Of a stretch of DNA of 64,000 nucleotides, positions 11,996-21,747 are shown piece by piece. The DNA is from Streptomyces sp. NBC_01231. Lineage in GTDB: Bacteria > Actinomycetota > Actinomycetes > Streptomycetales > Streptomycetaceae. The stretch's first letter is position 1; every line of letters begins with the position of its first letter. The translations under genes and the position numbers were made by a program. The notes beneath the pieces are model-generated. The model ran no database searches. It was given only the letters and a program-made list of their open reading frames with translations, and was not told the DNA's origin. The stretch is taken from positions 4,154,001-4,218,000 of the forward strand of contig CP108521.1 in the NCBI GenBank assembly GCA_035999765.1, given 5' to 3'.

Positions 11996-14242
11996 ATGAA
12001 GTTCACCGACGGCTACTGGCTGCTGCGCGAGGGTGTCACCGCGGCCTATCCGGTCGAGGTGCTCGACGTCACCGCGCAGGACGGCGCGCTGGAGATCCAC
12101 GCGCCGACCCAGCCCATCCGCCACCGCGGCGACCTGCTGAAGGGACCGGTCGTGACGATCAGCGCCCACGCCCCGATGCCCGACGTCATCGGCGTCACCT
12201 TCACCCACTTCGACGGCGAGCAGCCGCGCGGCCCGGAGTTCGAGGTCACCCACGAAGACGTCCCTCCGCAGGTGGCGTACGACGACGAGCACGCGACTCT
12301 GACCTCCGGCGCGCTGTCGGTCCGGGTGGCCCGCACCGGCTCCTGGCACGTCGACTTCCTCGCCCACGGCCGCACCCTCACCTCCAGCTCCACCAAGGGC
12401 ATGGGCATCATGCGGGACGCCTCGGGGCACTACCTGCGCGAACAGCTCAACCTCGGTGTGGGGACCTCGGTCTACGGCCTCGGTGAACGCTTCGGCCCCC
12501 TGGTGAAGAACGGCCAGGTCGTCGACATCTGGAACGCCGACGGCGGCACGGCGACCGAGCAGGCGTACAAGAACGTCCCCTTCTATCTGACGGACGCGGG
12601 CTACGGCGTCTTCGTCGACCACCCGGGCAAGGTGGCCTTCGAGGTCGGCTCCGAGGTCGTCTCCCGGGTGCAGTTCAGCGCCGAGACGCAGCAGTTGACG
12701 TACTACGTCATCTACGGCCCGACCCCGAAGGACATCCTGCGCACGTACACCGCCCTCACCGGCCGCCCCGCCCTCCCGCCGCCCTGGTCGTTCGGCCTGT
12801 GGCTGTCGACGTCCTTCACCACGTCGTACGACGAGGAGACCGTCACCTCGTTCATCGAGGGCATGCGCGAGCGGGAACTGCCGCTGTCCGTCTTCCACTT
12901 CGACTGCTTCTGGATGCGCGAGTTCAACTGGTGCGACTTCCAGTGGGACCCACGGGTGTTCCCGGACCCGGAGGGGATGCTCGCGCGGCTGCACGCGCGG
13001 GGCCTGCGGGTGTCCGCGTGGATCAACCCGTACATCGCCCAGCGCTCCCCGCTGTTCGCGGAGGGCAAGGCGCTGGGGCACCTGCTGAAGCGGCCGGACG
13101 GCAGCGTCTGGCAGTGGGACCTGTGGCAGCCCGGCATGGCGCTGGTCGACTTCACCAGTGCGGCGGCCCGCGAGTGGTACGCGTCCAAGCTGGAGGCGCT
13201 GCTCGCACAGGGTGTCGACTGCTTCAAGACGGATTTCGGGGAGCGGGTGCCCCTCGACGTGGTCTGGTCCGACGGCTCCGACCCGGAGCGGATGCACAAC
13301 TACTACACGTACCTCTACAACCGCACGGTCTTCGACGTGCTGCGCAAGCACCGGGGCGAGGAGGAGGCGGTCGTCTTCGCCCGCTCGGCGACGGCCGGGA
13401 GCCAGAAGTTCCCCGTCCACTGGGGCGGCGACTGCGAGGCGACGTACGAGTCGATGGCCGAGTCCCTGCGCGGAGGCCTCTCCCTCGGGCTCTCCGGCTT
13501 CGGCTTCTGGAGCCACGACATCGGCGGCTTCGAGGGCACCCCGACCCCGTCCCTGTTCAAGCGCTGGGTGGCCTTCGGACTGCTGTCCTCCCACAGCCGC
13601 CTGCACGGCAGCTCCTCCTACCGCGTGCCGTGGCTGTTCGACGAGGAATCGGTCGGCGTACTGCGGCACTTCACCCGGCTGAAGCTGCGGCTCATGCCGT
13701 ATCTGTACGAGGCCGCGCGCACCGCCCACACCGAGGGCGTGCCGGTGATGCGGGCGATGGTGCTGGAGTTCCCGGACGACCCCGGGTGCGCGCACCTGGA
13801 ACGGCAGTACATGCTCGGCCCGGACCTTCTGGTCGCGCCGGTGTTCAGCGACGAGGGCGACGTCTCGTACTACGTCCCCGAGGGCACCTGGACCCACTTC
13901 GTGACCGGGAAGACGGTGACGGGGCCGCGCTGGGTGCGCGAGCGGCACGACTTCCTGAGCGTGCCGCTGCTGGTGCGGCCCGGGGCGGTGATCCCGGTGG
14001 GCGCGGTGGCCGACCGGCCCGACTACGACCACGCCGACGGGGTCACGCTGCGGGCGTACGGCCTGGAACGGGGCGACCAGGTGACGGTACGGGTCGGGGA
14101 CGTGACCTTCACCGTCGTACGCGAGGGGGATCTGTTGCGGGCGTCGTGCGGTGACCCGGCGGCGCCGTGGGGGCTGGCCGTCGGTGAGCGCGAGGTGCGG
14201 GCGCGGGCCGGGACCGGGTTCCTCACGGTGGAGTGCGCCTGA
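11996..14242 (+). CDS. yicI: Alpha-xylosidase, glycoside hydrolase family 31 (YicI type)
   Basis: 748 aa, close to E. coli YicI (772 aa). The nucleophile motif CFKTDFGER places Asp413. The acid/base motif HWGGDCEATYESM places Asp479. Both positions match the family, as do the neighbouring DGSDPERMHN and GFGFWSHDIGGFE blocks. The conserved KTDFGE context and N-terminal domain favour alpha-xylosidase over alpha-glucosidase. No signal peptide is seen, so it should act in the cytoplasm on the imported oligosaccharide, releasing xylose from the non-reducing end. The start is the ATG at 11996, 11 bp after the permease stop. Its stop overlaps the LacI start (TGATG). Confidence 0.93.
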   Translation: MKFTDGYWLLREGVTAAYPVEVLDVTAQDGALEIHAPTQPIRHRGDLLKGPVVTISAHAPMPDVIGVTFTHFDGEQPRGPEFEVTHEDVPPQVAYDDEHATLTSGALSVRVARTGSWHVDFLAHGRTLTSSSTKGMGIMRDASGHYLREQLNLGVGTSVYGLGERFGPLVKNGQVVDIWNADGGTATEQAYKNVPFYLTDAGYGVFVDHPGKVAFEVGSEVVSRVQFSAETQQLTYYVIYGPTPKDILRTYTALTGRPALPPPWSFGLWLSTSFTTSYDEETVTSFIEGMRERELPLSVFHFDCFWMREFNWCDFQWDPRVFPDPEGMLARLHARGLRVSAWINPYIAQRSPLFAEGKALGHLLKRPDGSVWQWDLWQPGMALVDFTSAAAREWYASKLEALLAQGVDCFKTDFGERVPLDVVWSDGSDPERMHNYYTYLYNRTVFDVLRKHRGEEEAVVFARSATAGSQKFPVHWGGDCEATYESMAESLRGGLSLGLSGFGFWSHDIGGFEGTPTPSLFKRWVAFGLLSSHSRLHGSSSYRVPWLFDEESVGVLRHFTRLKLRLMPYLYEAARTAHTEGVPVMRAMVLEFPDDPGCAHLERQYMLGPDLLVAPVFSDEGDVSYYVPEGTWTHFVTGKTVTGPRWVRERHDFLSVPLLVRPGAVIPVGAVADRPDYDHADGVTLRAYGLERGDQVTVRVGDVTFTVVREGDLLRASCGDPAAPWGLAVGEREVRARAGTGFLTVECA

Positions 14243-15255
14243 TGGTGAAGATCACCGACGTGGCGCGGCGCGCCGGGGTGTCCCCGAGCACCGTGTCCTA
14301 CGCGCTCAGCGGCAAGCGCCCCATCTCCGAGGAGACCCGGCAGCGGGTGGAGGCCGCCATCCGCGAACTGGGCTACCGGCCCCACGCGGGCGCCCGGGCG
14401 CTGGCGAGCAGCAAGTCGAACGTGCTGGCGCTGGTGGCGCCGCTGCGGGCCGGCATCCATGTGCCGGTGATGATGGAGTTCGCGGTCTCGGTCGTCACCA
14501 CGGCCCGGCGCTACGACCATGACGTGCTCCTCCTCACCCAGGAGGAGGGCGAGGAGGGCCTCCACCGGGTCGCCGACACGGCACTCGTGGACGCGCTGAT
14601 CCTGATGGACGTACAGCTGCACGACCCTCGGCTGCCGCTGCTGCGAGCCCTGGAACGGCCGTCGGTGGTGATCGGGTTCCCCGCCTCCTCCACGGACCTG
14701 ACCTGCATCGACCTCGACTTCAAGGCGGCCGGCGAGGCGTGCGTGGAGCATCTGGCGGGCCTCGGACACCGGGTGGTGTCGCTGGTCGGGTCGCCGCCGG
14801 AGGTGTACGTCCGGCAGACCGCGTTCGCCCAGCACGTGGTCCAGGGTTTCACCGCCGCCGCCGACCGGCACGGGCTCGCCTCCTCGGTCCACCCGTGCGA
14901 GGCGGTCCCCGGTGGCGCCGGCGCGGTCGCCGAGCAACTCCTGCGCGAACAGCCCGCGCTGACGGGAGTCGTCGTCCACAACGAACCCTTGCTGGAGCCC
15001 CTGATCGACGCCTTCGAGAGACTCGGCCTACGCGTCCCCGGCGACCTCTCCGTCACCGCCATCTGCCCCGACGAACTCGCCGAGTCCGTCCGCGTACCCG
15101 TCACCTCGGTCGCCCTGCCGTCGGCGGAGGTGGGCACGCGCGCGGTGGAGCTGCTGATGCGGAAACTTGACGGCGACACGGACGTACCGGAGGCGACCCT
15201 GCTGGCACCGCGGCTGACGGAACGGGCGAGCACGGCGCGGCGGACGATCGCGTGA
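14242..15255 (+). CDS. LacI-family transcriptional repressor of the alpha-xyloside operon
   Basis: 337 aa. The N-terminal LacI helix-turn-helix reads ITDVARRAGVSPSTVSYALS, and the hinge segment ALASSKSNVLALV leads into a periplasmic-binding-protein-like sensor domain. The ATG at 14242 overlaps the alpha-xylosidase stop by one base (TGATG); a GTG at 14233 is possible but would add only three residues. Being the last gene of the operon, it probably represses its own promoter through the palindromes at 8813-8852. The inducer is unknown. Confidence 0.92.
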   Translation: MVKITDVARRAGVSPSTVSYALSGKRPISEETRQRVEAAIRELGYRPHAGARALASSKSNVLALVAPLRAGIHVPVMMEFAVSVVTTARRYDHDVLLLTQEEGEEGLHRVADTALVDALILMDVQLHDPRLPLLRALERPSVVIGFPASSTDLTCIDLDFKAAGEACVEHLAGLGHRVVSLVGSPPEVYVRQTAFAQHVVQGFTAAADRHGLASSVHPCEAVPGGAGAVAEQLLREQPALTGVVVHNEPLLEPLIDAFERLGLRVPGDLSVTAICPDELAESVRVPVTSVALPSAEVGTRAVELLMRKLDGDTDVPEATLLAPRLTERASTARRTIA

Positions 15256-15374
15256 ACAGACCTTCACATTCTGTGCCGCCCAACTCCCCTGGTCGTACTG
15301 GTCATCCACGGCGAATCTCGGCGGAGAATCGCTAGCATGGCCACGGATGATGAACGCGGTGACGGGGGTGGGGC

Positions 15375-15683
15375 ATGGCACGCGACGAGCGTGACGATGA
15401 CTGGCTGGATCTGGCGGACGCCATCGAGGTACTGCGGTCCCAGTTGTCGGAGGCCCAGCGCCGCGGTCAGGACTCCTCCTTGCGCTTCGTGCTGGGTGAG
15501 ATCACGGCGGAGTTCGAGATCGAGCTGGTCCGGGCGAAGAACGGCGGCGGAAAGCTGCGGTTCGGTGTCGTGGAGGCGGACGCCCGAGGCGAACGCTCGG
15601 CACGGTCCACCCAGCGCGTGACCCTGCGCCTGAACCCGGAGCGGCGCGGTGGCGGAGAGGTGGCTGTGGGCGACGTCGAATAG
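15375..15683 (+). CDS. Trypsin-co-occurring domain 2 (Trypco2) family protein
   Basis: 102 aa, cytoplasmic, no signal peptide. The order is an acidic start, a helix (DLADAIEVLRSQLSEAQ), then beta strands (LRFVLGEITAEFEIELV, LRFGVVEADA, TQRVTLRLNP). This is the pattern of the small domain found beside trypsin-like proteases in actinobacterial conflict systems. It precedes such a protease gene by 15 bp. The ATG at 15375 follows a G-rich ribosome-binding site. A possible -10 hexamer TAGCAT lies at 15333. Its biochemical role is unknown; a partner, substrate or regulator of the protease is plausible. Confidence 0.82.
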   Translation: MARDERDDDWLDLADAIEVLRSQLSEAQRRGQDSSLRFVLGEITAEFEIELVRAKNGGGKLRFGVVEADARGERSARSTQRVTLRLNPERRGGGEVAVGDVE

Positions 15684-15698
15684 TCCGGGGACGGGTTC

Positions 15699-18600
15699 AT
15701 GGAGCAGGAACAGGTCGTCAAGGTCCGCAGCAGAACCGTCGGCACAACCCTGAGTACCAGCTTCGGCAGTGGCTACCTGATCGCGCCTCGGCTCGTCCTG
15801 ACCGCCGCGCATCTGCTGCCACCGGACGAACACGGCGAGATCACGGTGTCCCTCCCGGACTCCACCGATCGGTTCCCCGCACAAGTGGTGTGGCGACGGC
15901 ACGACGAGACCGTGGACGCCGCCCTGTTGGAGATCCCCGTGGCCGCCCGGGACTGGCCGACGCCGAGAACCCTGCGCGGCGCTCCGTACCGCCACCCCCA
16001 ACGCTGGGCCCGGTGCGTGACGGGCGGCACCGAGCTGCGGGCCATCGCGACAGGATTCCCCCGGCAGGAGCGCACCACGGACCGCCGGAACCAGACGGCA
16101 CTGGCCGGCCGGGTCAGGCCGCACGGTGGCGCGACCTTCGAGATCCTCGACGACATCGGGCTGTTGGAGGCCGACGTCTCGGAGCTCGACGCCGAAACCG
16201 CCGCGAGGACCACCCCATGGTCCGGGATGTCGGGCGCTGCCGTCTTCCTGCTCGGCGAGAAACTGCTGCTGGGCGTGGTGCGAGCAGACCGCCGACCGCG
16301 TCAGGGCACGCGGCTGCGGTACACCCGCAGCGACGACCTGCTGGCCTGTCCGGACTTCCGCGCGGCCGTCCGCGCGGCGACCGGCGCCGACCCGCAGCTC
16401 GAAGCGGCCGAGTTCACCGGCCTGCTGGAGCCGGCGCCGCCCAGACGGGACATGCTGTCCCCCATCGCGCTGCTGCGGGCCGACGCCGAGGTCGTCTCGT
16501 TCCACGGCAGGCAGGACACACTCTCCGACCTGGAGGAGTGGTGCCGGACGGATCCGTACGGTCCCCTCGCCGTCCGGGTACTCACCGCTCCGGGCGGGCA
16601 GGGCAAGACCCGGCTGGCGCGGCAGCTGATGGCGCGGATGCGGGAGCAGGGCTGGGTGGTCGGACAGCTGTCCCACGAGCCCCGTGACCTGCACGTCCTG
16701 GGCGCGGTCCAGTATCCGTTGCTGCTGGTCATCGACTACGCCGAGACCCGGCCCGAACTGGTCAGGAAGCTGCGGGAGCAAACCCGTCAGGCCCGCCATC
16801 CGGTGCGCCTGCTGCTGCTCGCCCGCTCGCTCGGCTCCTGGCAGACCAGGGCCACCGGCGCCCTGCCCGAGACCAGACTGCATGCGCTCAGCCCCGGCGC
16901 CGCCGACCGGGAGGAGGCGTTCCGGACGGCGGTCCGGGACATCTCCCGCCACCTGGCGGAGGTGATCAGCGGGACGGACGTCGACTGGCCCGCTCTCGCC
17001 GACGCCCTGACGGCCGCCCGCCCCGCGGCGGGCCCCGGGGCGCAGACGGCGCTGACGGTGCAGATGGAGGCGCTGGCCGCGCTGCTGCGCCGTGTTCGGC
17101 CACCCCAGCGGGACGCGAGGACGCTGGAGGACGAACTCCTGGACCACGAGAGGACGTACTGGCAGGAGACCGCCGACGGGTGGGGCATGGGGACCCGGGG
17201 AAACAAGCTCCTCGAACCGGCGGTGGCGGCGGCCGTGCTGTGTCCCACACAGGACGAGCACGAGGCCCGGGCGACCATCGAACGGCTGCTGCCCGGTGAA
17301 CTGCCGGGACACATCACGGACATCACCGCCTGGCTGCGCGACCTTTATCCGCCGCCCGAGGGCCGTTACTGGGGCCAGCTGGAGCCGGACCGGCTGGCGG
17401 AGTACCACGCCTCGGACCAGGTCGTCGCCGACAGGGGGCTGCTCAGGAGACTGTTCGGCCGAGCCACGGACCACCAGCGGGTGCAGACCCTCACCGTGCT
17501 GGCCCGCTCTGCCGTGGCCCACACCAACCAGGGCCGTGCGGCCACGGCGCACACCGTCATCGACCTGCTGCGCGAGGCGCTCCGCTCCGTCCCCGCCTAC
17601 GCACCGCTGACCGCCACCGTGCTGCGCGCACACTCGGACGCACTGCCGGAGCAGTCCCACGTCCTGCGCGACCACGCGCTCGATGTCGCCCGCGAACTGA
17701 GCCGCCTGTGCCATGCCACGGGGAACGCCCCGCAGGCACGACGGGACCGCGCCTGGGCGCTGCACAACCTGGCCGAGCGGCACCAGGCGATCGGCGACTG
17801 GGAGGACGCCCGGGAGGCCGCCGTCGCAGCCGCGGCGCTCCGCGAGGAGATGGCGGACGACGGGTCGCTGACGCTCCGCACGGAGTGGGCCGACACGCTG
17901 CTGGTGCTGTCGCAGGCCTGCGACATGACCGGGCGCCTGATGGAGGCCTACGACGCCGGCGACCAGGCGTTGAGCCTCTTCCGCGCCCTGGCGGAGGAGG
18001 ACGGCGAGGAGTGGGAGAAGCGCGAGCGCGGACTGGTGCGGGCACTGATCAACCAGTCACAGGCGGTCTGGCAGCTCGACCCGAGCGCGATTCCCTTCGA
18101 CCAGATCGCCCGGTCCGACGATCACACCGAGGAGGCCGTCCGGCGGGCCCGCGCACTGGTGTCCCGGCACCCCGAACTGGACCCGCTCCTGCTCGTCAGG
18201 GCGCTGACGGAGCGAGGCACGAACCTCTGGCGCCTGCAACGGCATCCGGAGGCACTGGCGCTGGGCGAGGAGGCGGTGAAGGCCTCTCGCCGGTTGGCGG
18301 CGGAGAACCCGGACGCGTACACCGCCGACCTCGCGCGCGCTCTGATGGGCCTCGCCGTCGACTACAGCGCCGCCTCGCGGCCCCGCGGCGAGACCATGGC
18401 ACTGGAACGGGAAGCGATCGAACTGGTGCGCCCGCTGGTCGGGGAACTTCCCGGAGTCCACCGCTCCACCCTGGCGCAGACACTGCACAACCTCGCCCTG
18501 GGACAGTCCCAGGAAGGGGACGCCGCGGCGGCGCGGGAGTCCATCCGAGAGGCCATCGAGCACCGCAGGGCCCTGGCCCGCGACCCGCACGGCGTCGCGG

Positions 18601-19682
18601 TGCCAGGCCTCGCCCGTTCGGTCAGTGTGCTCGCCGGTTTCCATGAGCGCACAGGCGACAACGCGGCGGCGGCCGAGGGCTTCGAGGAGGCCCTCGAGAT
18701 CTACGCGCACGCCCCTCTGCCGCTCAACGCGAGCAATCTGAACGCTCAATCCGGAACCGCTCTGGATCTCGCCCGCGCCTACGACGCCCTCGGCCGCCCG
18801 ACGGAGGCGGCCGCTCCCCTGAGTCAAGCCCTTGCCATCCGGCGGCGCCTCAGCGAGTACGCCCCGAGCCTCTACACGGAGGGGTATGCCAGCAGCCTCC
18901 ACGACGGTTCCTACCTGTACTGGAAGCACGGCCGTCCCGTCGCGGAGCGCATCCTGCTGCGCCAGGCCCTGCCGCACCACCGCCGCATGGCCCGCGACAG
19001 CGAGGAGGGGCGCGAGTGGCTGGCCATCTGCCTGCATGACCTCGGCGCCAGCTACGCGAGGTCCTCGGTGACGGTCCACCGGGCGGTTCCCGCACTGCGG
19101 GAGGCGTACGAGCTGCGTGTGGAACTGGCGGCCAGGGATGCGCGGTACGAGGCGGGCCTGGCCGCCACCTGCACGGAACTGGCAGGAGCGTTCCTGTGGA
19201 CGAGCCGCTTCCGCGACTGCGTCCCGATCGCGGAACACTCGGTACGCCTTCGCCGCAAGCTGCTCATCGCGGACCCCGACAGCCAGGAACAGCCTCTCTG
19301 CTACGCCCTCCTGCGGCTGGCCCAGGCGCAGGCGATGGCGGGGCACGCCTTGGCGGCCTGGCGCACCGTACTCGAGGCCGAGGAGCTCTCCCGGGCGCTG
19401 ACCGATCGTCCCGGCCGGTCACCGGAGCAGAACGCCTTCCTCCTCCGGCAACTGGCCCAGGCGTTGAGCCTGTGCGGCCGGCACGACTTTCGCCGGGCCG
19501 TCCGGGCGGTGGAACCGGCCCGGCGGGCCGCTCGGATCTTCCGGAACCTGGTGGATCAGGACCCGCACCAGGCCCAGGCCCAGGCCAACCTGAGAGGGGC
19601 CCTCACCCTGCTCGCCAGGGTTCTGGACCGCATCGGCCGTCACGACGAGGCCATCGAGGCGCAAATGCGCAGAGGAGCATGA
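15699..19682 (+). CDS. Trypsin-like protease / P-loop NTPase / TPR protein (STAND-like)
   Basis: 1327 aa. Residues 1-220 are a trypsin-like serine protease: LTAAHLL gives His38, ETVDAALLEI gives Asp73 and WSGMSGAAVF gives Ser178, a complete triad. After a linker, FHGRQDTLSDLEEW leads into a P-loop NTPase with Walker A APGGQGKT (Lys303) and Walker B LLVIDYAE (Asp346). From about 640 to the end is a long helical array with TPR-like pairs (WALHNLAERHQAIGDWEDA, TLAQTLHNLALGQSQEGD). No signal peptide. The plan of effector, NTPase switch and repeat sensor is that of STAND proteins: the repeats would detect a trigger, the NTPase oligomerise and the protease cut a target. That mechanism is inferred. 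It sits 15 bp after the Trypco2 gene and 4 bp before the DUF4913 gene. Confidence 0.87.
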   Translation: MEQEQVVKVRSRTVGTTLSTSFGSGYLIAPRLVLTAAHLLPPDEHGEITVSLPDSTDRFPAQVVWRRHDETVDAALLEIPVAARDWPTPRTLRGAPYRHPQRWARCVTGGTELRAIATGFPRQERTTDRRNQTALAGRVRPHGGATFEILDDIGLLEADVSELDAETAARTTPWSGMSGAAVFLLGEKLLLGVVRADRRPRQGTRLRYTRSDDLLACPDFRAAVRAATGADPQLEAAEFTGLLEPAPPRRDMLSPIALLRADAEVVSFHGRQDTLSDLEEWCRTDPYGPLAVRVLTAPGGQGKTRLARQLMARMREQGWVVGQLSHEPRDLHVLGAVQYPLLLVIDYAETRPELVRKLREQTRQARHPVRLLLLARSLGSWQTRATGALPETRLHALSPGAADREEAFRTAVRDISRHLAEVISGTDVDWPALADALTAARPAAGPGAQTALTVQMEALAALLRRVRPPQRDARTLEDELLDHERTYWQETADGWGMGTRGNKLLEPAVAAAVLCPTQDEHEARATIERLLPGELPGHITDITAWLRDLYPPPEGRYWGQLEPDRLAEYHASDQVVADRGLLRRLFGRATDHQRVQTLTVLARSAVAHTNQGRAATAHTVIDLLREALRSVPAYAPLTATVLRAHSDALPEQSHVLRDHALDVARELSRLCHATGNAPQARRDRAWALHNLAERHQAIGDWEDAREAAVAAAALREEMADDGSLTLRTEWADTLLVLSQACDMTGRLMEAYDAGDQALSLFRALAEEDGEEWEKRERGLVRALINQSQAVWQLDPSAIPFDQIARSDDHTEEAVRRARALVSRHPELDPLLLVRALTERGTNLWRLQRHPEALALGEEAVKASRRLAAENPDAYTADLARALMGLAVDYSAASRPRGETMALEREAIELVRPLVGELPGVHRSTLAQTLHNLALGQSQEGDAAAARESIREAIEHRRALARDPHGVAVPGLARSVSVLAGFHERTGDNAAAAEGFEEALEIYAHAPLPLNASNLNAQSGTALDLARAYDALGRPTEAAAPLSQALAIRRRLSEYAPSLYTEGYASSLHDGSYLYWKHGRPVAERILLRQALPHHRRMARDSEEGREWLAICLHDLGASYARSSVTVHRAVPALREAYELRVELAARDARYEAGLAATCTELAGAFLWTSRFRDCVPIAEHSVRLRRKLLIADPDSQEQPLCYALLRLAQAQAMAGHALAAWRTVLEAEELSRALTDRPGRSPEQNAFLLRQLAQALSLCGRHDFRRAVRAVEPARRAARIFRNLVDQDPHQAQAQANLRGALTLLARVLDRIGRHDEAIEAQMRRGA

Positions 19683-19686
19683 CGCC

Positions 19687-20142
19687 ATGACAGCACCACG
19701 TGAAGAGGGGCAGGACGAGTCGCTGGATGACATCCGGCGCGACGAGGAGAACGCCGCTCGCCCGGCAGAGCTCTTCTACGGGAACGTCAATGAATTCGTC
19801 ACCGAGCGGCTCATCTACTTCGTTCCCTCTCCCGCTCCTGGCTCGGGACGGGTCTGGTGCTCGGAGTGGTACCGGCATGCCGCGGCGCTGTCCCGGCTGG
19901 ACTCGGTCTGGCGGGCCTGGGAACACCTGCGCTTCGACCCTGCCACGGGCATGTCGAACTGGTGGCTCCACCACGCGGACCCGAATCTGCGTGCCTTGAT
20001 GGACCCGGTCACAGGACCGTTCGGCGGGTGCGTCGACGGCCACCGGAGCCAGGAGCCGCTGCCGGTCGAGACCCCGCCGGACAGTCTGTTCACGGACCAG
20101 AGGGGGCAGCTGGGCGCAAACGATCCGTTCGCCCTCGGCTGA
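19687..20142 (+). CDS. DUF4913 family protein
   Basis: 151 aa, soluble. The core (FVTERLIYFV, WCSEWYRHAAALSRLD, VWRAWEHLRFDPATGMSNWW, HHADPNLRALMDP) is the DUF4913 pattern found widely in actinobacteria, often in integrative plasmids and accessory islands. Function unknown. It starts 4 bp after the protease/NTPase stop, with GAGGAG in the end of that gene as ribosome-binding site, so it is the third gene of the cassette. Its link to the protease rests only on this spacing. Confidence 0.82.
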   Translation: MTAPREEGQDESLDDIRRDEENAARPAELFYGNVNEFVTERLIYFVPSPAPGSGRVWCSEWYRHAAALSRLDSVWRAWEHLRFDPATGMSNWWLHHADPNLRALMDPVTGPFGGCVDGHRSQEPLPVETPPDSLFTDQRGQLGANDPFALG

Positions 20143-20223
20143 GCCGTCCTCGAGCAGGGCGAAGGCCCGGTCCGCGCGGTGGCGGGCGTCGGCAGGTCGG
20201 CGCCCCGGCCCAGGAGACGAGGT

Positions 20224-21210
20224 TCAGCCGAGCCCCCAGGCCCGTCCGAGCCGGTACGCGGCACACAGGTTCACGTCGAGGAGGTACGCCCCCGACGTCC
20301 CGCACTGCTCGCTCCCGCTCCCGGGATCGACGGGCTGCCCGTGTCCCATCCCGGTGACGCTGTACGTCTCCACGACGGGGTGCCCGCCCGTGTCCTGGAA
20401 GACCTGGTGGGGATACCCGGCCACGGTGTCGCTGACGTCGGCGGTCCGGTCGACCCCGTGGACGTCGGTCCACTGACCCGTCAGGTCGGTCATGTTGACG
20501 GGCTTCACGGTGTGGTCGGCGGTGCCCTGGAAGACGGTGAGCGTGGGCCAGGGGCCGCCGTACCCGGGGCGGGCGGCCCGCACCCGGTCGCCCCACTGCC
20601 GCGGGGTCTGGGTGGCGCCGACGTACATGCAGACGTACGGCGACCCGGCGGCCTGCGCGCATCCGTACGGCAGTCCGGCGACGACGCCTCCGCCGGCGAA
20701 CTTCTCCGGGTACGCCGCCATCATCACGGCGCTCATGCCACCGCCGGCGGACAGCCCGGTGACGTAGACCCGCGAGGCGTTGCCGGAGACGTCGGCGACT
20801 TGCCGGTCGACCATCTGCGCGACGGACGCGGCCTCTCCCCGACCCCGCTCGATGTCGCCGCTCTGGAACCAGTCGAAGCAGCTCGACGCGTTGTTGGCGG
20901 TCTGCTGCTGCGGCAGCACGACGGAGAAACCCCAGCGGTCGGCGAGCTGGAGCCATCCGCTGCCGGTGCCGTAGCCGGAGGCGTTCTGCGTGCATCCGTG
21001 CAGCGCGACGACGACGGGCCGGCCGGCGGGCAGCCCGTCGGGGACGTACCGGAACATGCGGAGGGCACCGGGGTTGGTCCCGAACCCGGCGACCTCCTGG
21101 AGGGAGGCGGCCTCGGCCCGGCCAGGAGTGAGAAGGGCGGTGAGAAGGGCGATTAAGAGGGCCGCCAGATGGAGAGGGCGGCGTGCGGCTCTGGTGTCTG
21201 TGTCTGTCAT
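20224..21210 (-). CDS. Secreted PHB-depolymerase-family esterase
   Basis: 328 aa. A signal peptide (MTDTDTRAARRPLHL, hydrophobic core, cleavage near AEA-A, about residue 35) precedes an alpha/beta hydrolase of the extracellular poly(3-hydroxybutyrate) depolymerase/feruloyl-esterase family. Visible are the oxyanion segment VVALHGCTQN, the nucleophile elbow GLSAGGGMS and the C-terminal His in GMGHGQPVDPGS. It should act outside the cell on a polyester or an esterified plant polymer; the substrate cannot be told. The start at 21210 is set by the signal peptide; no good ribosome-binding site precedes it. It is convergent with the DUF4913 gene. Confidence 0.9.
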   Translation of the reverse strand: MTDTDTRAARRPLHLAALLIALLTALLTPGRAEAASLQEVAGFGTNPGALRMFRYVPDGLPAGRPVVVALHGCTQNASGYGTGSGWLQLADRWGFSVVLPQQQTANNASSCFDWFQSGDIERGRGEAASVAQMVDRQVADVSGNASRVYVTGLSAGGGMSAVMMAAYPEKFAGGGVVAGLPYGCAQAAGSPYVCMYVGATQTPRQWGDRVRAARPGYGGPWPTLTVFQGTADHTVKPVNMTDLTGQWTDVHGVDRTADVSDTVAGYPHQVFQDTGGHPVVETYSVTGMGHGQPVDPGSGSEQCGTSGAYLLDVNLCAAYRLGRAWGLG

Positions 21211-21344
21211 GAGGAGGGACCGTAGAGGCGTGAACGGCCCGTCGACATGGGTCGACACACCACAACGAGCGGGGCGCGCGTGTTCGCGCATGACACAGGC
21301 CCCGCCGCTCGGAAGCGACGGGGCCTGTGCCCACATGGGATGAG

Positions 21345-21747
21345 TGGAGATGGCGGGAATCGAACCCGCGTCCAACGGTGCGGAATCAGGGCTTCTCCGT
21401 GTGCAGTTCGCTGTGATTTTCTCAGCCCCGGCGATCACGCGAACAAGTCGCCGACGGGCTCAGTCACTGTTTGGTTTCCCTCTTCACCCCGTGACCGGGA
21501 TCAAGGTTTAGTCCCCTAGCTGATGCCAGGATCCGGGTCGGGAACAGCCCCGGGCTGACACTCCGTTACGTGCGGAGCAGTAGCCTAGTTACCTGAGATC
21601 AGGCAGCGATGGCGTACTGCGACTGCACGGGAGAATCGCTCTTGATAGTGGCGATTATTTTTTGCGACATATGGTTTACGAGATCATTGCCGCTTCCTCG
21701 ACACGCTTCCCCTGCTTCGACATCCGCTGTCGAAACCGATCATCCCC
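21345..21747 (-). ncRNA. ssrA: Transfer-messenger RNA (tmRNA)
   Basis: On the minus strand the 5' end is GGGGATGATCGGTTTCGACA (from 21747) and the 3' end is the T-arm GGTTCGATTCCCGCC followed by acceptor bases and encoded CCA (21345), giving about 403 nt. An internal frame at 21599-21652 ends ...QYAIAA then TGA, as expected of a proteolysis tag; the likely resume codon is GCC at 21650-21652, giving a 17-residue tag starting ATIKSDS. It works with SmpB, encoded about 100 bp upstream on the same strand, to rescue stalled ribosomes. Confidence 0.95.

What the first reader, a model, noticed from the sequence alone, without database searches (positions are those of the whole stretch)
15375..20142. 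Three-gene Trypco2 / trypsin-NTPase-TPR / DUF4913 cassette: candidate conflict or defence system
Three tightly packed plus-strand genes (gaps 15 and 4 bp) sit between core metabolic and housekeeping genes. The central 1327-aa protein has an intact protease triad (His38, Asp73, Ser178), an intact Walker A/B pair (Lys303, Asp346) and a long TPR-like sensor array: the effector-switch-sensor plan of STAND proteins. Trypco2 domains are known from comparative genomics to travel with such proteases. DUF4913 as a third component of this unit is, as far as I know, not characterised. A trigger-activated protease that acts against phage or mediates programmed death is the working idea.
Basis: partly seen in the sequence, partly recalled or inferred. 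Interest (0 to 1): 0.78.

Follow-up and report, generated by a model that had tools for sequence, protein, structure and literature searches.

The report
Protease switch with captured conjugation protein
Three adjacent Streptomyces genes look like a mobile, immune-like protease switch that has picked up a relative of a protein normally found beside the DNA-transfer motor of conjugative plasmids, hinting that it may watch for incoming plasmids rather than, or as well as, phages.

Summary
In detail: Trypco2 (15375-15683), a 1327-aa trypsin-like protease/STAND-type NTPase/TPR protein (15699-19682) and DUF4913 (19687-20142), with all five quoted catalytic residues. It is a real unit: the same three genes in the same order occur in six loci read in full, central protein down to 39% identity, in five different neighbourhoods. 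At the window's site (LacI-tmRNA) seven of seven relatives opened have the flanks and no cassette. Trypco2 tracks the protease part (19 of 21 relatives with it, 0 of 9 without). DUF4913 is an addition, found only with the closest subfamily (5 of 30 places in 101 Streptomyces genomes). The new point is what DUF4913 is: on 14 of 15 actinobacterial plasmids opened it lies just after the type IV secretion coupling-protein gene or its remains, and in the tree cassette copies lie among such copies. So a Trypco2/protease/NTPase conflict module has taken up a predicted metal-binding conjugation-accessory protein. I propose that it is bait or sensor for incoming conjugative elements; the main rival is that it is the protease's substrate. 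Anti-phage action has no specific support, and no function was tested. A new variant of a known kind.

The parts
15375..15683 (+). Gene 1: Trypco2 protein, 102 aa, presumed adaptor of the protease
   Evidence: PF19631 83.9 bits; directly upstream of 19 of 21 P2 relatives that keep the protease part, 0 of 9 that lack it
15699..19682 (+). Gene 2 (P2): 1327-aa protease-NTPase-TPR protein
   Evidence: five catalytic residues kept in 117 of 120 listed proteins
15765..16268 (+). Trypsin_2 domain of P2 (residues 23-190; H38, D73, S178)
   Evidence: PF13365 36.2 bits; residues read
16545..16847 (+). NTPase match of P2 (residues 283-383; Walker A K303, Walker B D346)
   Evidence: nSTAND_NTPase5 30 bits, under cut-off 34; motif residues in 120 of 120
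17754..19667 (+). TPR stretch of P2 (matches between residues 686 and 1323)
   Evidence: TPR_12, TPR_2, TPR_8, TPR_10 matches
19687..20142 (+). Gene 3: DUF4913 protein, 151 aa, related to proteins encoded beside the conjugation coupling protein; predicted metal site C58, H64, C115, H119
   Evidence: PF16259 106.4 bits; plasmid contexts; residues; all-helical model, pLDDT 82.7
14233..15255 (+). Left flank: LacI-type regulator
   Evidence: Pfam LacI; flank kept without the cassette in 7 of 7 relatives opened
20224..21438 (-). Right neighbour: PHB-depolymerase-like esterase ORF (longest start overlaps tmRNA, so the real start is probably internal)
   Evidence: PF10503 102.1 bits; also in L034 and L190
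21344..21747 (-). Right flank: tmRNA gene, followed by smpB, S41 peptidase and ftsX
   Evidence: ARAGORN; Pfam; kept in 7 of 7 relatives opened

Best explanation
A mobile three-gene conflict module. Shown by sequence: a Trypco2 + trypsin-NTPase-TPR pair, which occurs more widely as a two-gene set, has gained a DUF4913 gene related to conjugation proteins. Inferred mechanism: P2, with Trypco2 as adaptor of its protease, is held inactive in complex with DUF4913 through its TPR array. DUF4913 imitates a small metal-binding accessory of the conjugation coupling protein (T4CP). When a conjugative element enters or expresses its transfer machinery, its T4CP or relaxosome binds or displaces this bait; the NTPase exchanges nucleotide and assembles, the protease is switched on, and cleavage of targets (perhaps DUF4913 itself or a host protein) arrests or kills the hyphal compartment, so that the element does not spread. 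My estimates: integrated conflict module with DUF4913 as a working component 0.75; DUF4913 there because of its conjugation identity (bait, sensor or interference) 0.4; the whole mechanism as written 0.3.
For: Trio conserved in order in six loci read in full, P2 91-39% identical; 4 ordered pairs in 101 genomes against about 0.02 expected. Trypco2 tracks the protease part. Protease and NTPase residues kept. DUF4913 follows the T4CP gene or its remains in 14 of 15 plasmids opened of 275, and all 6 larger non-cassette chromosomal loci opened hold type IV secretion genes while 0 of 7 cassette loci do. Cassette DUF4913 copies lie among the conjugation-linked ones in the tree and vary with P2 (r 0.65, n 21). 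The cassette is patchy and sits at different sites; the window site is empty in 7 of 7 relatives opened.
Against: No function was tested. No known defence gene found near other cassettes. P2-like proteins, though not of this subfamily, are themselves on 60 of 72,556 plasmids (best full-length hit 34.5% identity), and a Trypco2 + trypsin-NB-ARC-TPR pair lies in a T4CP-bearing region, so such modules may serve elements too. Of 22 short loci of more distant chromosomal DUF4913 (1.5-kb flanks) only 1 shows a T4CP. That DUF4913 binds a T4CP is not known.
Confidence: 0.3

Rival explanations
1. DUF4913 is the substrate and effector. The switch-activated protease cuts it in its cassette-specific extensions and frees an active or toxic core, as trypsin-fused Hachiman and AVAST proteins cut and unlock a partner nuclease.
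For: Protease kept intact. Cassette copies carry an acidic N-terminus and a conserved tail. Precedent: protease-activated pro-nucleases (PMC12799240, abstract and passages). P2 and DUF4913 co-vary.
Against: DUF4913 shows no recognised catalytic motif, and conjugative plasmids keep the same core without the protease beside it. Most P2 relatives in Streptomyces lack it: 25 of 30 places (one of these, G028, is cut by its contig end).
Confidence: 0.25
2. DUF4913 is a structural partner only. As it follows a coupling ATPase on plasmids, here it follows another P-loop ATPase and helps its assembly or localisation; the trigger is something else, for example a phage protein sensed by the TPRs.
For: Same slot, directly after an ATPase gene, in both settings. 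STAND-type proteins with repeat sensors are known phage sensors (recalled; passages of PMC10907252 say so for putative systems).
Against: The P2 NTPase is STAND-like by its best Pfam match, not a coupling ATPase. P2 relatives without DUF4913 keep all motifs.
Confidence: 0.2
3. Not defence of the host: a developmental or stress protease, or a module serving mobile elements (competition or maintenance), with DUF4913 left over from such an element.
For: Patchy spread, different sites, ordinary neighbours. P2-like proteins on 60 plasmids. A Trypco2 + trypsin-NB-ARC-TPR pair lies in a T4CP-bearing region in G067 (L074).
Against: A leftover would hardly stay adjacent and co-vary down to 39% P2 identity. 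No T4SS gene in 7 of 7 cassette loci, and no integrase or relaxase among the neighbours scanned.
Confidence: 0.15

Closest known systems
Trypco1/Trypco2-trypsin parts of MoxR-vWA-VMAP ternary conflict systems (Kaur et al. 2020, PMC7159879)
   Same: [quoted passage not shown] multicellular Actinobacteria
   Different: P2 is a STAND-type NTPase-TPR protein; no MoxR, vWA or VMAP match in the cassette or the neighbours scanned; DUF4913 is not mentioned in that paper's hits
Avs1 (AVAST type 1) and protease-nuclease pairs (PMC12799240)
   Same: Trypsin-like domain fused to a STAND-type protein with a small partner gene
   Different: Only about 95 residues of the protease match Avs1b (22.9 bits against a cut-off of 1500); no metallo-beta-lactamase nuclease beside it; partners are Trypco2 and DUF4913
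CARD-NLR systems, LypABC (PMC13236601)
   Same: Trypsin-like peptidase and TPR-ATPase working as an immune-like set
   Different: There the peptidase and the TPR-ATPase are separate proteins; here they are one; no CARD or endonuclease match
DUF4913 proteins of actinobacterial conjugation modules
   Same: Same domain, 39-50% identity among the 30 plasmid hits listed, same C/H/C/H set in 16 of 18 rows with context seen
   Different: Those opened follow the T4CP gene; the cassette copies follow a protease-NTPase gene and have extra conserved ends

Membership tests
Trypco2-coupled trypsin conflict proteins | Trypco2 gene next to a trypsin-like peptidase | tested here: met
   rule holds in 19 of 21 relatives with the protease part
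MoxR-vWA-VMAP ternary system | MoxR, vWA and VMAP components | tested here: not met
   No such Pfam match in the three proteins or the ten neighbours scanned; the rest of the genome was not searched for them
STAND NTPases / bacterial NLR-like proteins | N-terminal effector, central P-loop NTPase, C-terminal repeats | tested here: met
STAND NTPases / bacterial NLR-like proteins | Curated STAND profile reached | tested here: inconclusive
   30 bits against 34; listed as PF25199.2 in the precomputed set
STAND NTPases / bacterial NLR-like proteins | Ligand-triggered assembly | not testable with these tools
   Needs protein
Avs1 (AVAST type 1) | Full-length Avs1b profile | tested here: not met
   Residues 9-104 only, 22.9 bits against 1500; PADLOC Avs1b residues 9-83
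Avs1 (AVAST type 1) | Partner metallo-beta-lactamase-type nuclease gene | tested here: not met
   Gene upstream is Trypco2, then LacI and GH31
Conjugation-linked DUF4913 | DUF4913 domain | tested here: met
   106.4 bits
Conjugation-linked DUF4913 | Coupling-protein gene directly upstream | tested here: not met
   No T4CP, VirB4 or SCO6880 homologue in 7 of 7 cassette loci, including the 64-kb window

The most novel reading that the evidence does not exclude
An NLR-like protease in Streptomyces and its kin carries a stolen conjugation protein as an integrated bait: an innate immune system that detects conjugation machinery itself. The capture may have happened twice: in the tree the DUF4913 copies of the two most diverged cassettes (G081, G098) group with conjugation-linked copies (98/96) and not with the main cassette group, although a single cassette clade is not rejected (AU p 0.182).
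Probability: 0.25. Interest if true: 0.85.

Novelty: new variant of a known kind. Interest (0 to 1): 0.6.

Why it matters
The characterised NLR-like bacterial proteins I can recall answer to phage products. A protease switch tied to a T4CP-linked protein would make plasmid sensing by an NLR-like system directly testable, in a genus whose mycelium shares cytoplasm. It also gives a first lead for DUF4913, a family named in no paper of the library searched: a small, probably metal-binding partner of the conjugation coupling protein in Actinobacteria.

Tried and rejected
Rejected: chance adjacency (about 0.02 ordered pairs expected, 4 seen; rough estimate with an assumed mean genome of 8.7 Mb); Avs1 membership; a VMAP ternary system; phage cargo (0 of 50,697 phage records for DUF4913; one confirmed DUF4913 locus among viral contigs, L195, which carries T4CP, VirB4 and SCO6880 homologues; no Trypco2 relative there; P2 itself was not searched in phages); an att-type direct repeat at the tmRNA end (none stands out); a defence island (nine neighbours only).

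Against my reading and kept: two captures of DUF4913 are suggested, not proved (104 columns). The loose tail pattern also occurs in 3 of 18 conjugation-linked rows (L042-L044), there at the DPLPV that corresponds to EPLPV in the cassette core and not at the end. One search scored at most 6 candidates a genome and at most 4, so relatives of P2 may be undercounted. Rows P0122-P0201 were called cassette-type, and P0202-P0205 conjugation-linked, by similarity; their neighbourhoods were not seen except through 21 shared contig lengths.

Full report
What is there. Pfam finds Trypco2 in gene 1; Trypsin_2 (23-190), a below-cut-off nSTAND_NTPase5 match (283-383) and TPRs (between 686 and 1323) in gene 2; and DUF4913 in gene 3. 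His38, Asp73, Ser178, Lys303 and Asp346 are present. Of 773 proteins found with gene 2 the 120 listed, the window's own among them, were aligned: 117 keep all five residues, and Ser178, Lys303 and Asp346 are in 120 of 120. PADLOC and NCBIfam recognise only the protease part, weakly, as Avs1b-like; NCBIfam also gives weak MarP and YfiO matches far under their cut-offs.

It is a unit. Complete trios were read in six loci: the window, S. violaceoruber NRRL S-981 (L034), S. candidus (L035) and three unnamed Streptomyces genomes (L071, L072, L073), with P2 identities of 91, 87, 70, 61 and 39%; in a seventh (L078, 34%) a contig edge hides the Trypco2 side. The window and L034 share a site; the other four are each elsewhere. 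In 101 Streptomyces genomes Trypco2 occurs in 64 and DUF4913 in 41; ordered same-strand pairs at the cassette spacing occur in 4 (G000, G040, G057, G098), against about 0.02 expected (rough estimate). A fifth genome, G067, has the two domains in the reverse order in a region with a T4CP; that is a different arrangement. A class-wide draw found P2 relatives in 4 of 148 genomes: the own one, two with Trypco2 but no DUF4913, and one with neither.

Core and addition. P2 relatives were found at 30 places (31 rows, two of one protein) in 24 of those 101 genomes (at most 6 candidates scored a genome). Of 21 that keep the protease part, counting G081 at its contig edge, 19 have Trypco2 directly upstream; the other two are G081 and G041, which lies on a 6.3-kb contig. 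Of 9 without the protease part none has it (Fisher p 4e-6). DUF4913 follows only the five best-scoring; a sixth (G028) is cut by its contig end. A tblastn scan of 26 loci of P2 relatives (14 of the genome search, 12 longer stretches of some of the same places) finds DUF4913 in those five only. So Trypco2 + protease-NTPase-TPR is the core and DUF4913 an addition in one subfamily. P2 and DUF4913 distances correlate (r 0.65, n 21, 0 of 2000 permutations as high).

What DUF4913 is. tblastn of the cassette protein hits 275 of 72,556 plasmids, mostly Arthrobacter, Rhodococcus and Streptomyces, all under 60% identity, and 0 of 50,697 phages. I opened 15 of the 275: the 12 of an even spread (one of these had been opened from its first listing) plus 3 of my choice (the rest). 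In 11 the annotated coupling protein (type IV secretory conjugative transfer / TraM recognition / TraD-TraG) is the gene directly upstream; in 3 more (L094, L099, L101) a T4CP homologue lies within about 1 kb, broken, unannotated or one ORF away; in 1 (L100) the record ends there. Six larger chromosomal regions around non-cassette DUF4913 (three chosen for top score, one as the own genome's second copy, one as the G067 case, one further pick) all hold type IV secretion genes, T4CP in five and VirB4 and SCO6880 relatives in the sixth; seven cassette loci hold none. Twenty-two shorter loci (1.5-kb flanks) of more distant chromosomal copies show a T4CP in 1 only, so the link is less well tested for that group.

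Tree and features. In a careful tree of 55 rows and 104 columns the cassette-type copies sit in one branch (80/96) together with three conjugation-linked chromosomal copies, next to T4CP-linked plasmid copies. Copies from the two most diverged cassettes join those chromosomal copies (98/96), which suggests a second capture; one cassette clade is not rejected (p 0.182). Group labels of the P rows rest on similarity. C58, H64, C115 and H119 are kept in 82 of 83 main cassette-type rows and 2 of 2 diverged ones, and in 16 of 18 conjugation-linked rows whose context was seen; L087 and the related P0205 lack all four together. In 20 of 23 other rows the last His is shifted to C-x8-H. This looks like a metal site; geometry was not checked. 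Cassette-type copies have an acidic N-terminus and a tail with a [DNHT]-P-[FLMY]-x-[LIVF] pattern in the last 24 residues in 77 of 80; both diverged ones have it too, while most conjugation-linked ones stop earlier (tails printed). AlphaFold2 gives a mostly helical model (mean pLDDT 82.7, pTM 0.73) with no match among the nine PDB chains offered.

Site. In the window the cassette lies between LacI and an esterase ORF next to tmRNA-smpB-S41-ftsX. Of 40 relatives searched, nine have a LacI at least 70% identical; the seven with LacI beside tmRNA were opened, and all seven have LacI, tmRNA, smpB, S41 and ftsX and none the cassette. The LacI-tmRNA interval is about 60, 67, 123 and 235 bp in four and about 1.8, 3.0 and 4.9 kb in three, the last with the esterase. 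L034 has the same right side; its left side is cut by the contig end. In S. candidus the cassette lies elsewhere, without tmRNA, yet a 33-residue remnant of the LacI C-terminus (70% identity) precedes it, and DNA similarity stops two bases past the DUF4913 stop. The cassette therefore seems to move as a unit, at least once with donor flank; no att repeat was found, and no integrase among the neighbours scanned.

Reading. Trypco domains were defined as neighbours of trypsin-like peptidases in conflict systems (PMC7159879, 12 passages) and are called adapters in PMC10907252 (6 passages). Recent work shows trypsin-fused defence proteins unlocking a partner nuclease (PMC12799240, abstract and passages) and a peptidase + TPR-ATPase set controlling release of gene transfer agents (PMC13236601, passages). 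PMC8195603 was read in passages for STAND families. With DUF4913 identified as a conjugation-linked protein, the most economical idea is a bait or sensor for conjugative elements; the substrate idea is the main rival, and plasmids that carry P2-like proteins (60 of 72,556) keep an element-serving role open. Searches for Trypco2, DUF4913, trypsin-STAND systems and plasmid-sensing NLR systems showed no report of this combination in the listings seen (one search listed 10 of 47); subscription papers and preprints are mostly not in that library.

Noticed in passing
15256-21343: The LacI-tmRNA interval is a variable insertion spot: about 60-235 bp in four relatives, 1.8, 3.0 and 4.9 kb with other content in three, 6.1 kb here.
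   Followed up: partly
21344-21747: The tmRNA tag here ends AIAA (ATIKSDSPVQSQYAIAA); the eight related tmRNAs checked all end ALAA.
   Followed up: no
L035:9448-9543: S. candidus: a 33-residue LacI C-terminal remnant just upstream of the cassette, although LacI, smpB and tmRNA are not found at that locus.
   Followed up: partly
L074:11886-14883: G067: Trypco2 plus a 940-aa trypsin-NB-ARC-TPR protein in a region with a T4CP and a DUF4913 gene: such modules may also be cargo of conjugative elements.
   Followed up: no
L087:6001-6429, and protein P0205: Two related DUF4913 proteins lack all four C/H/C/H residues together, as expected for loss of a metal site.
   Followed up: no
L073:12933-14576 and L078:4571-6199: In the two most diverged cassettes the next gene downstream is a methionyl-tRNA synthetase.
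   Followed up: no
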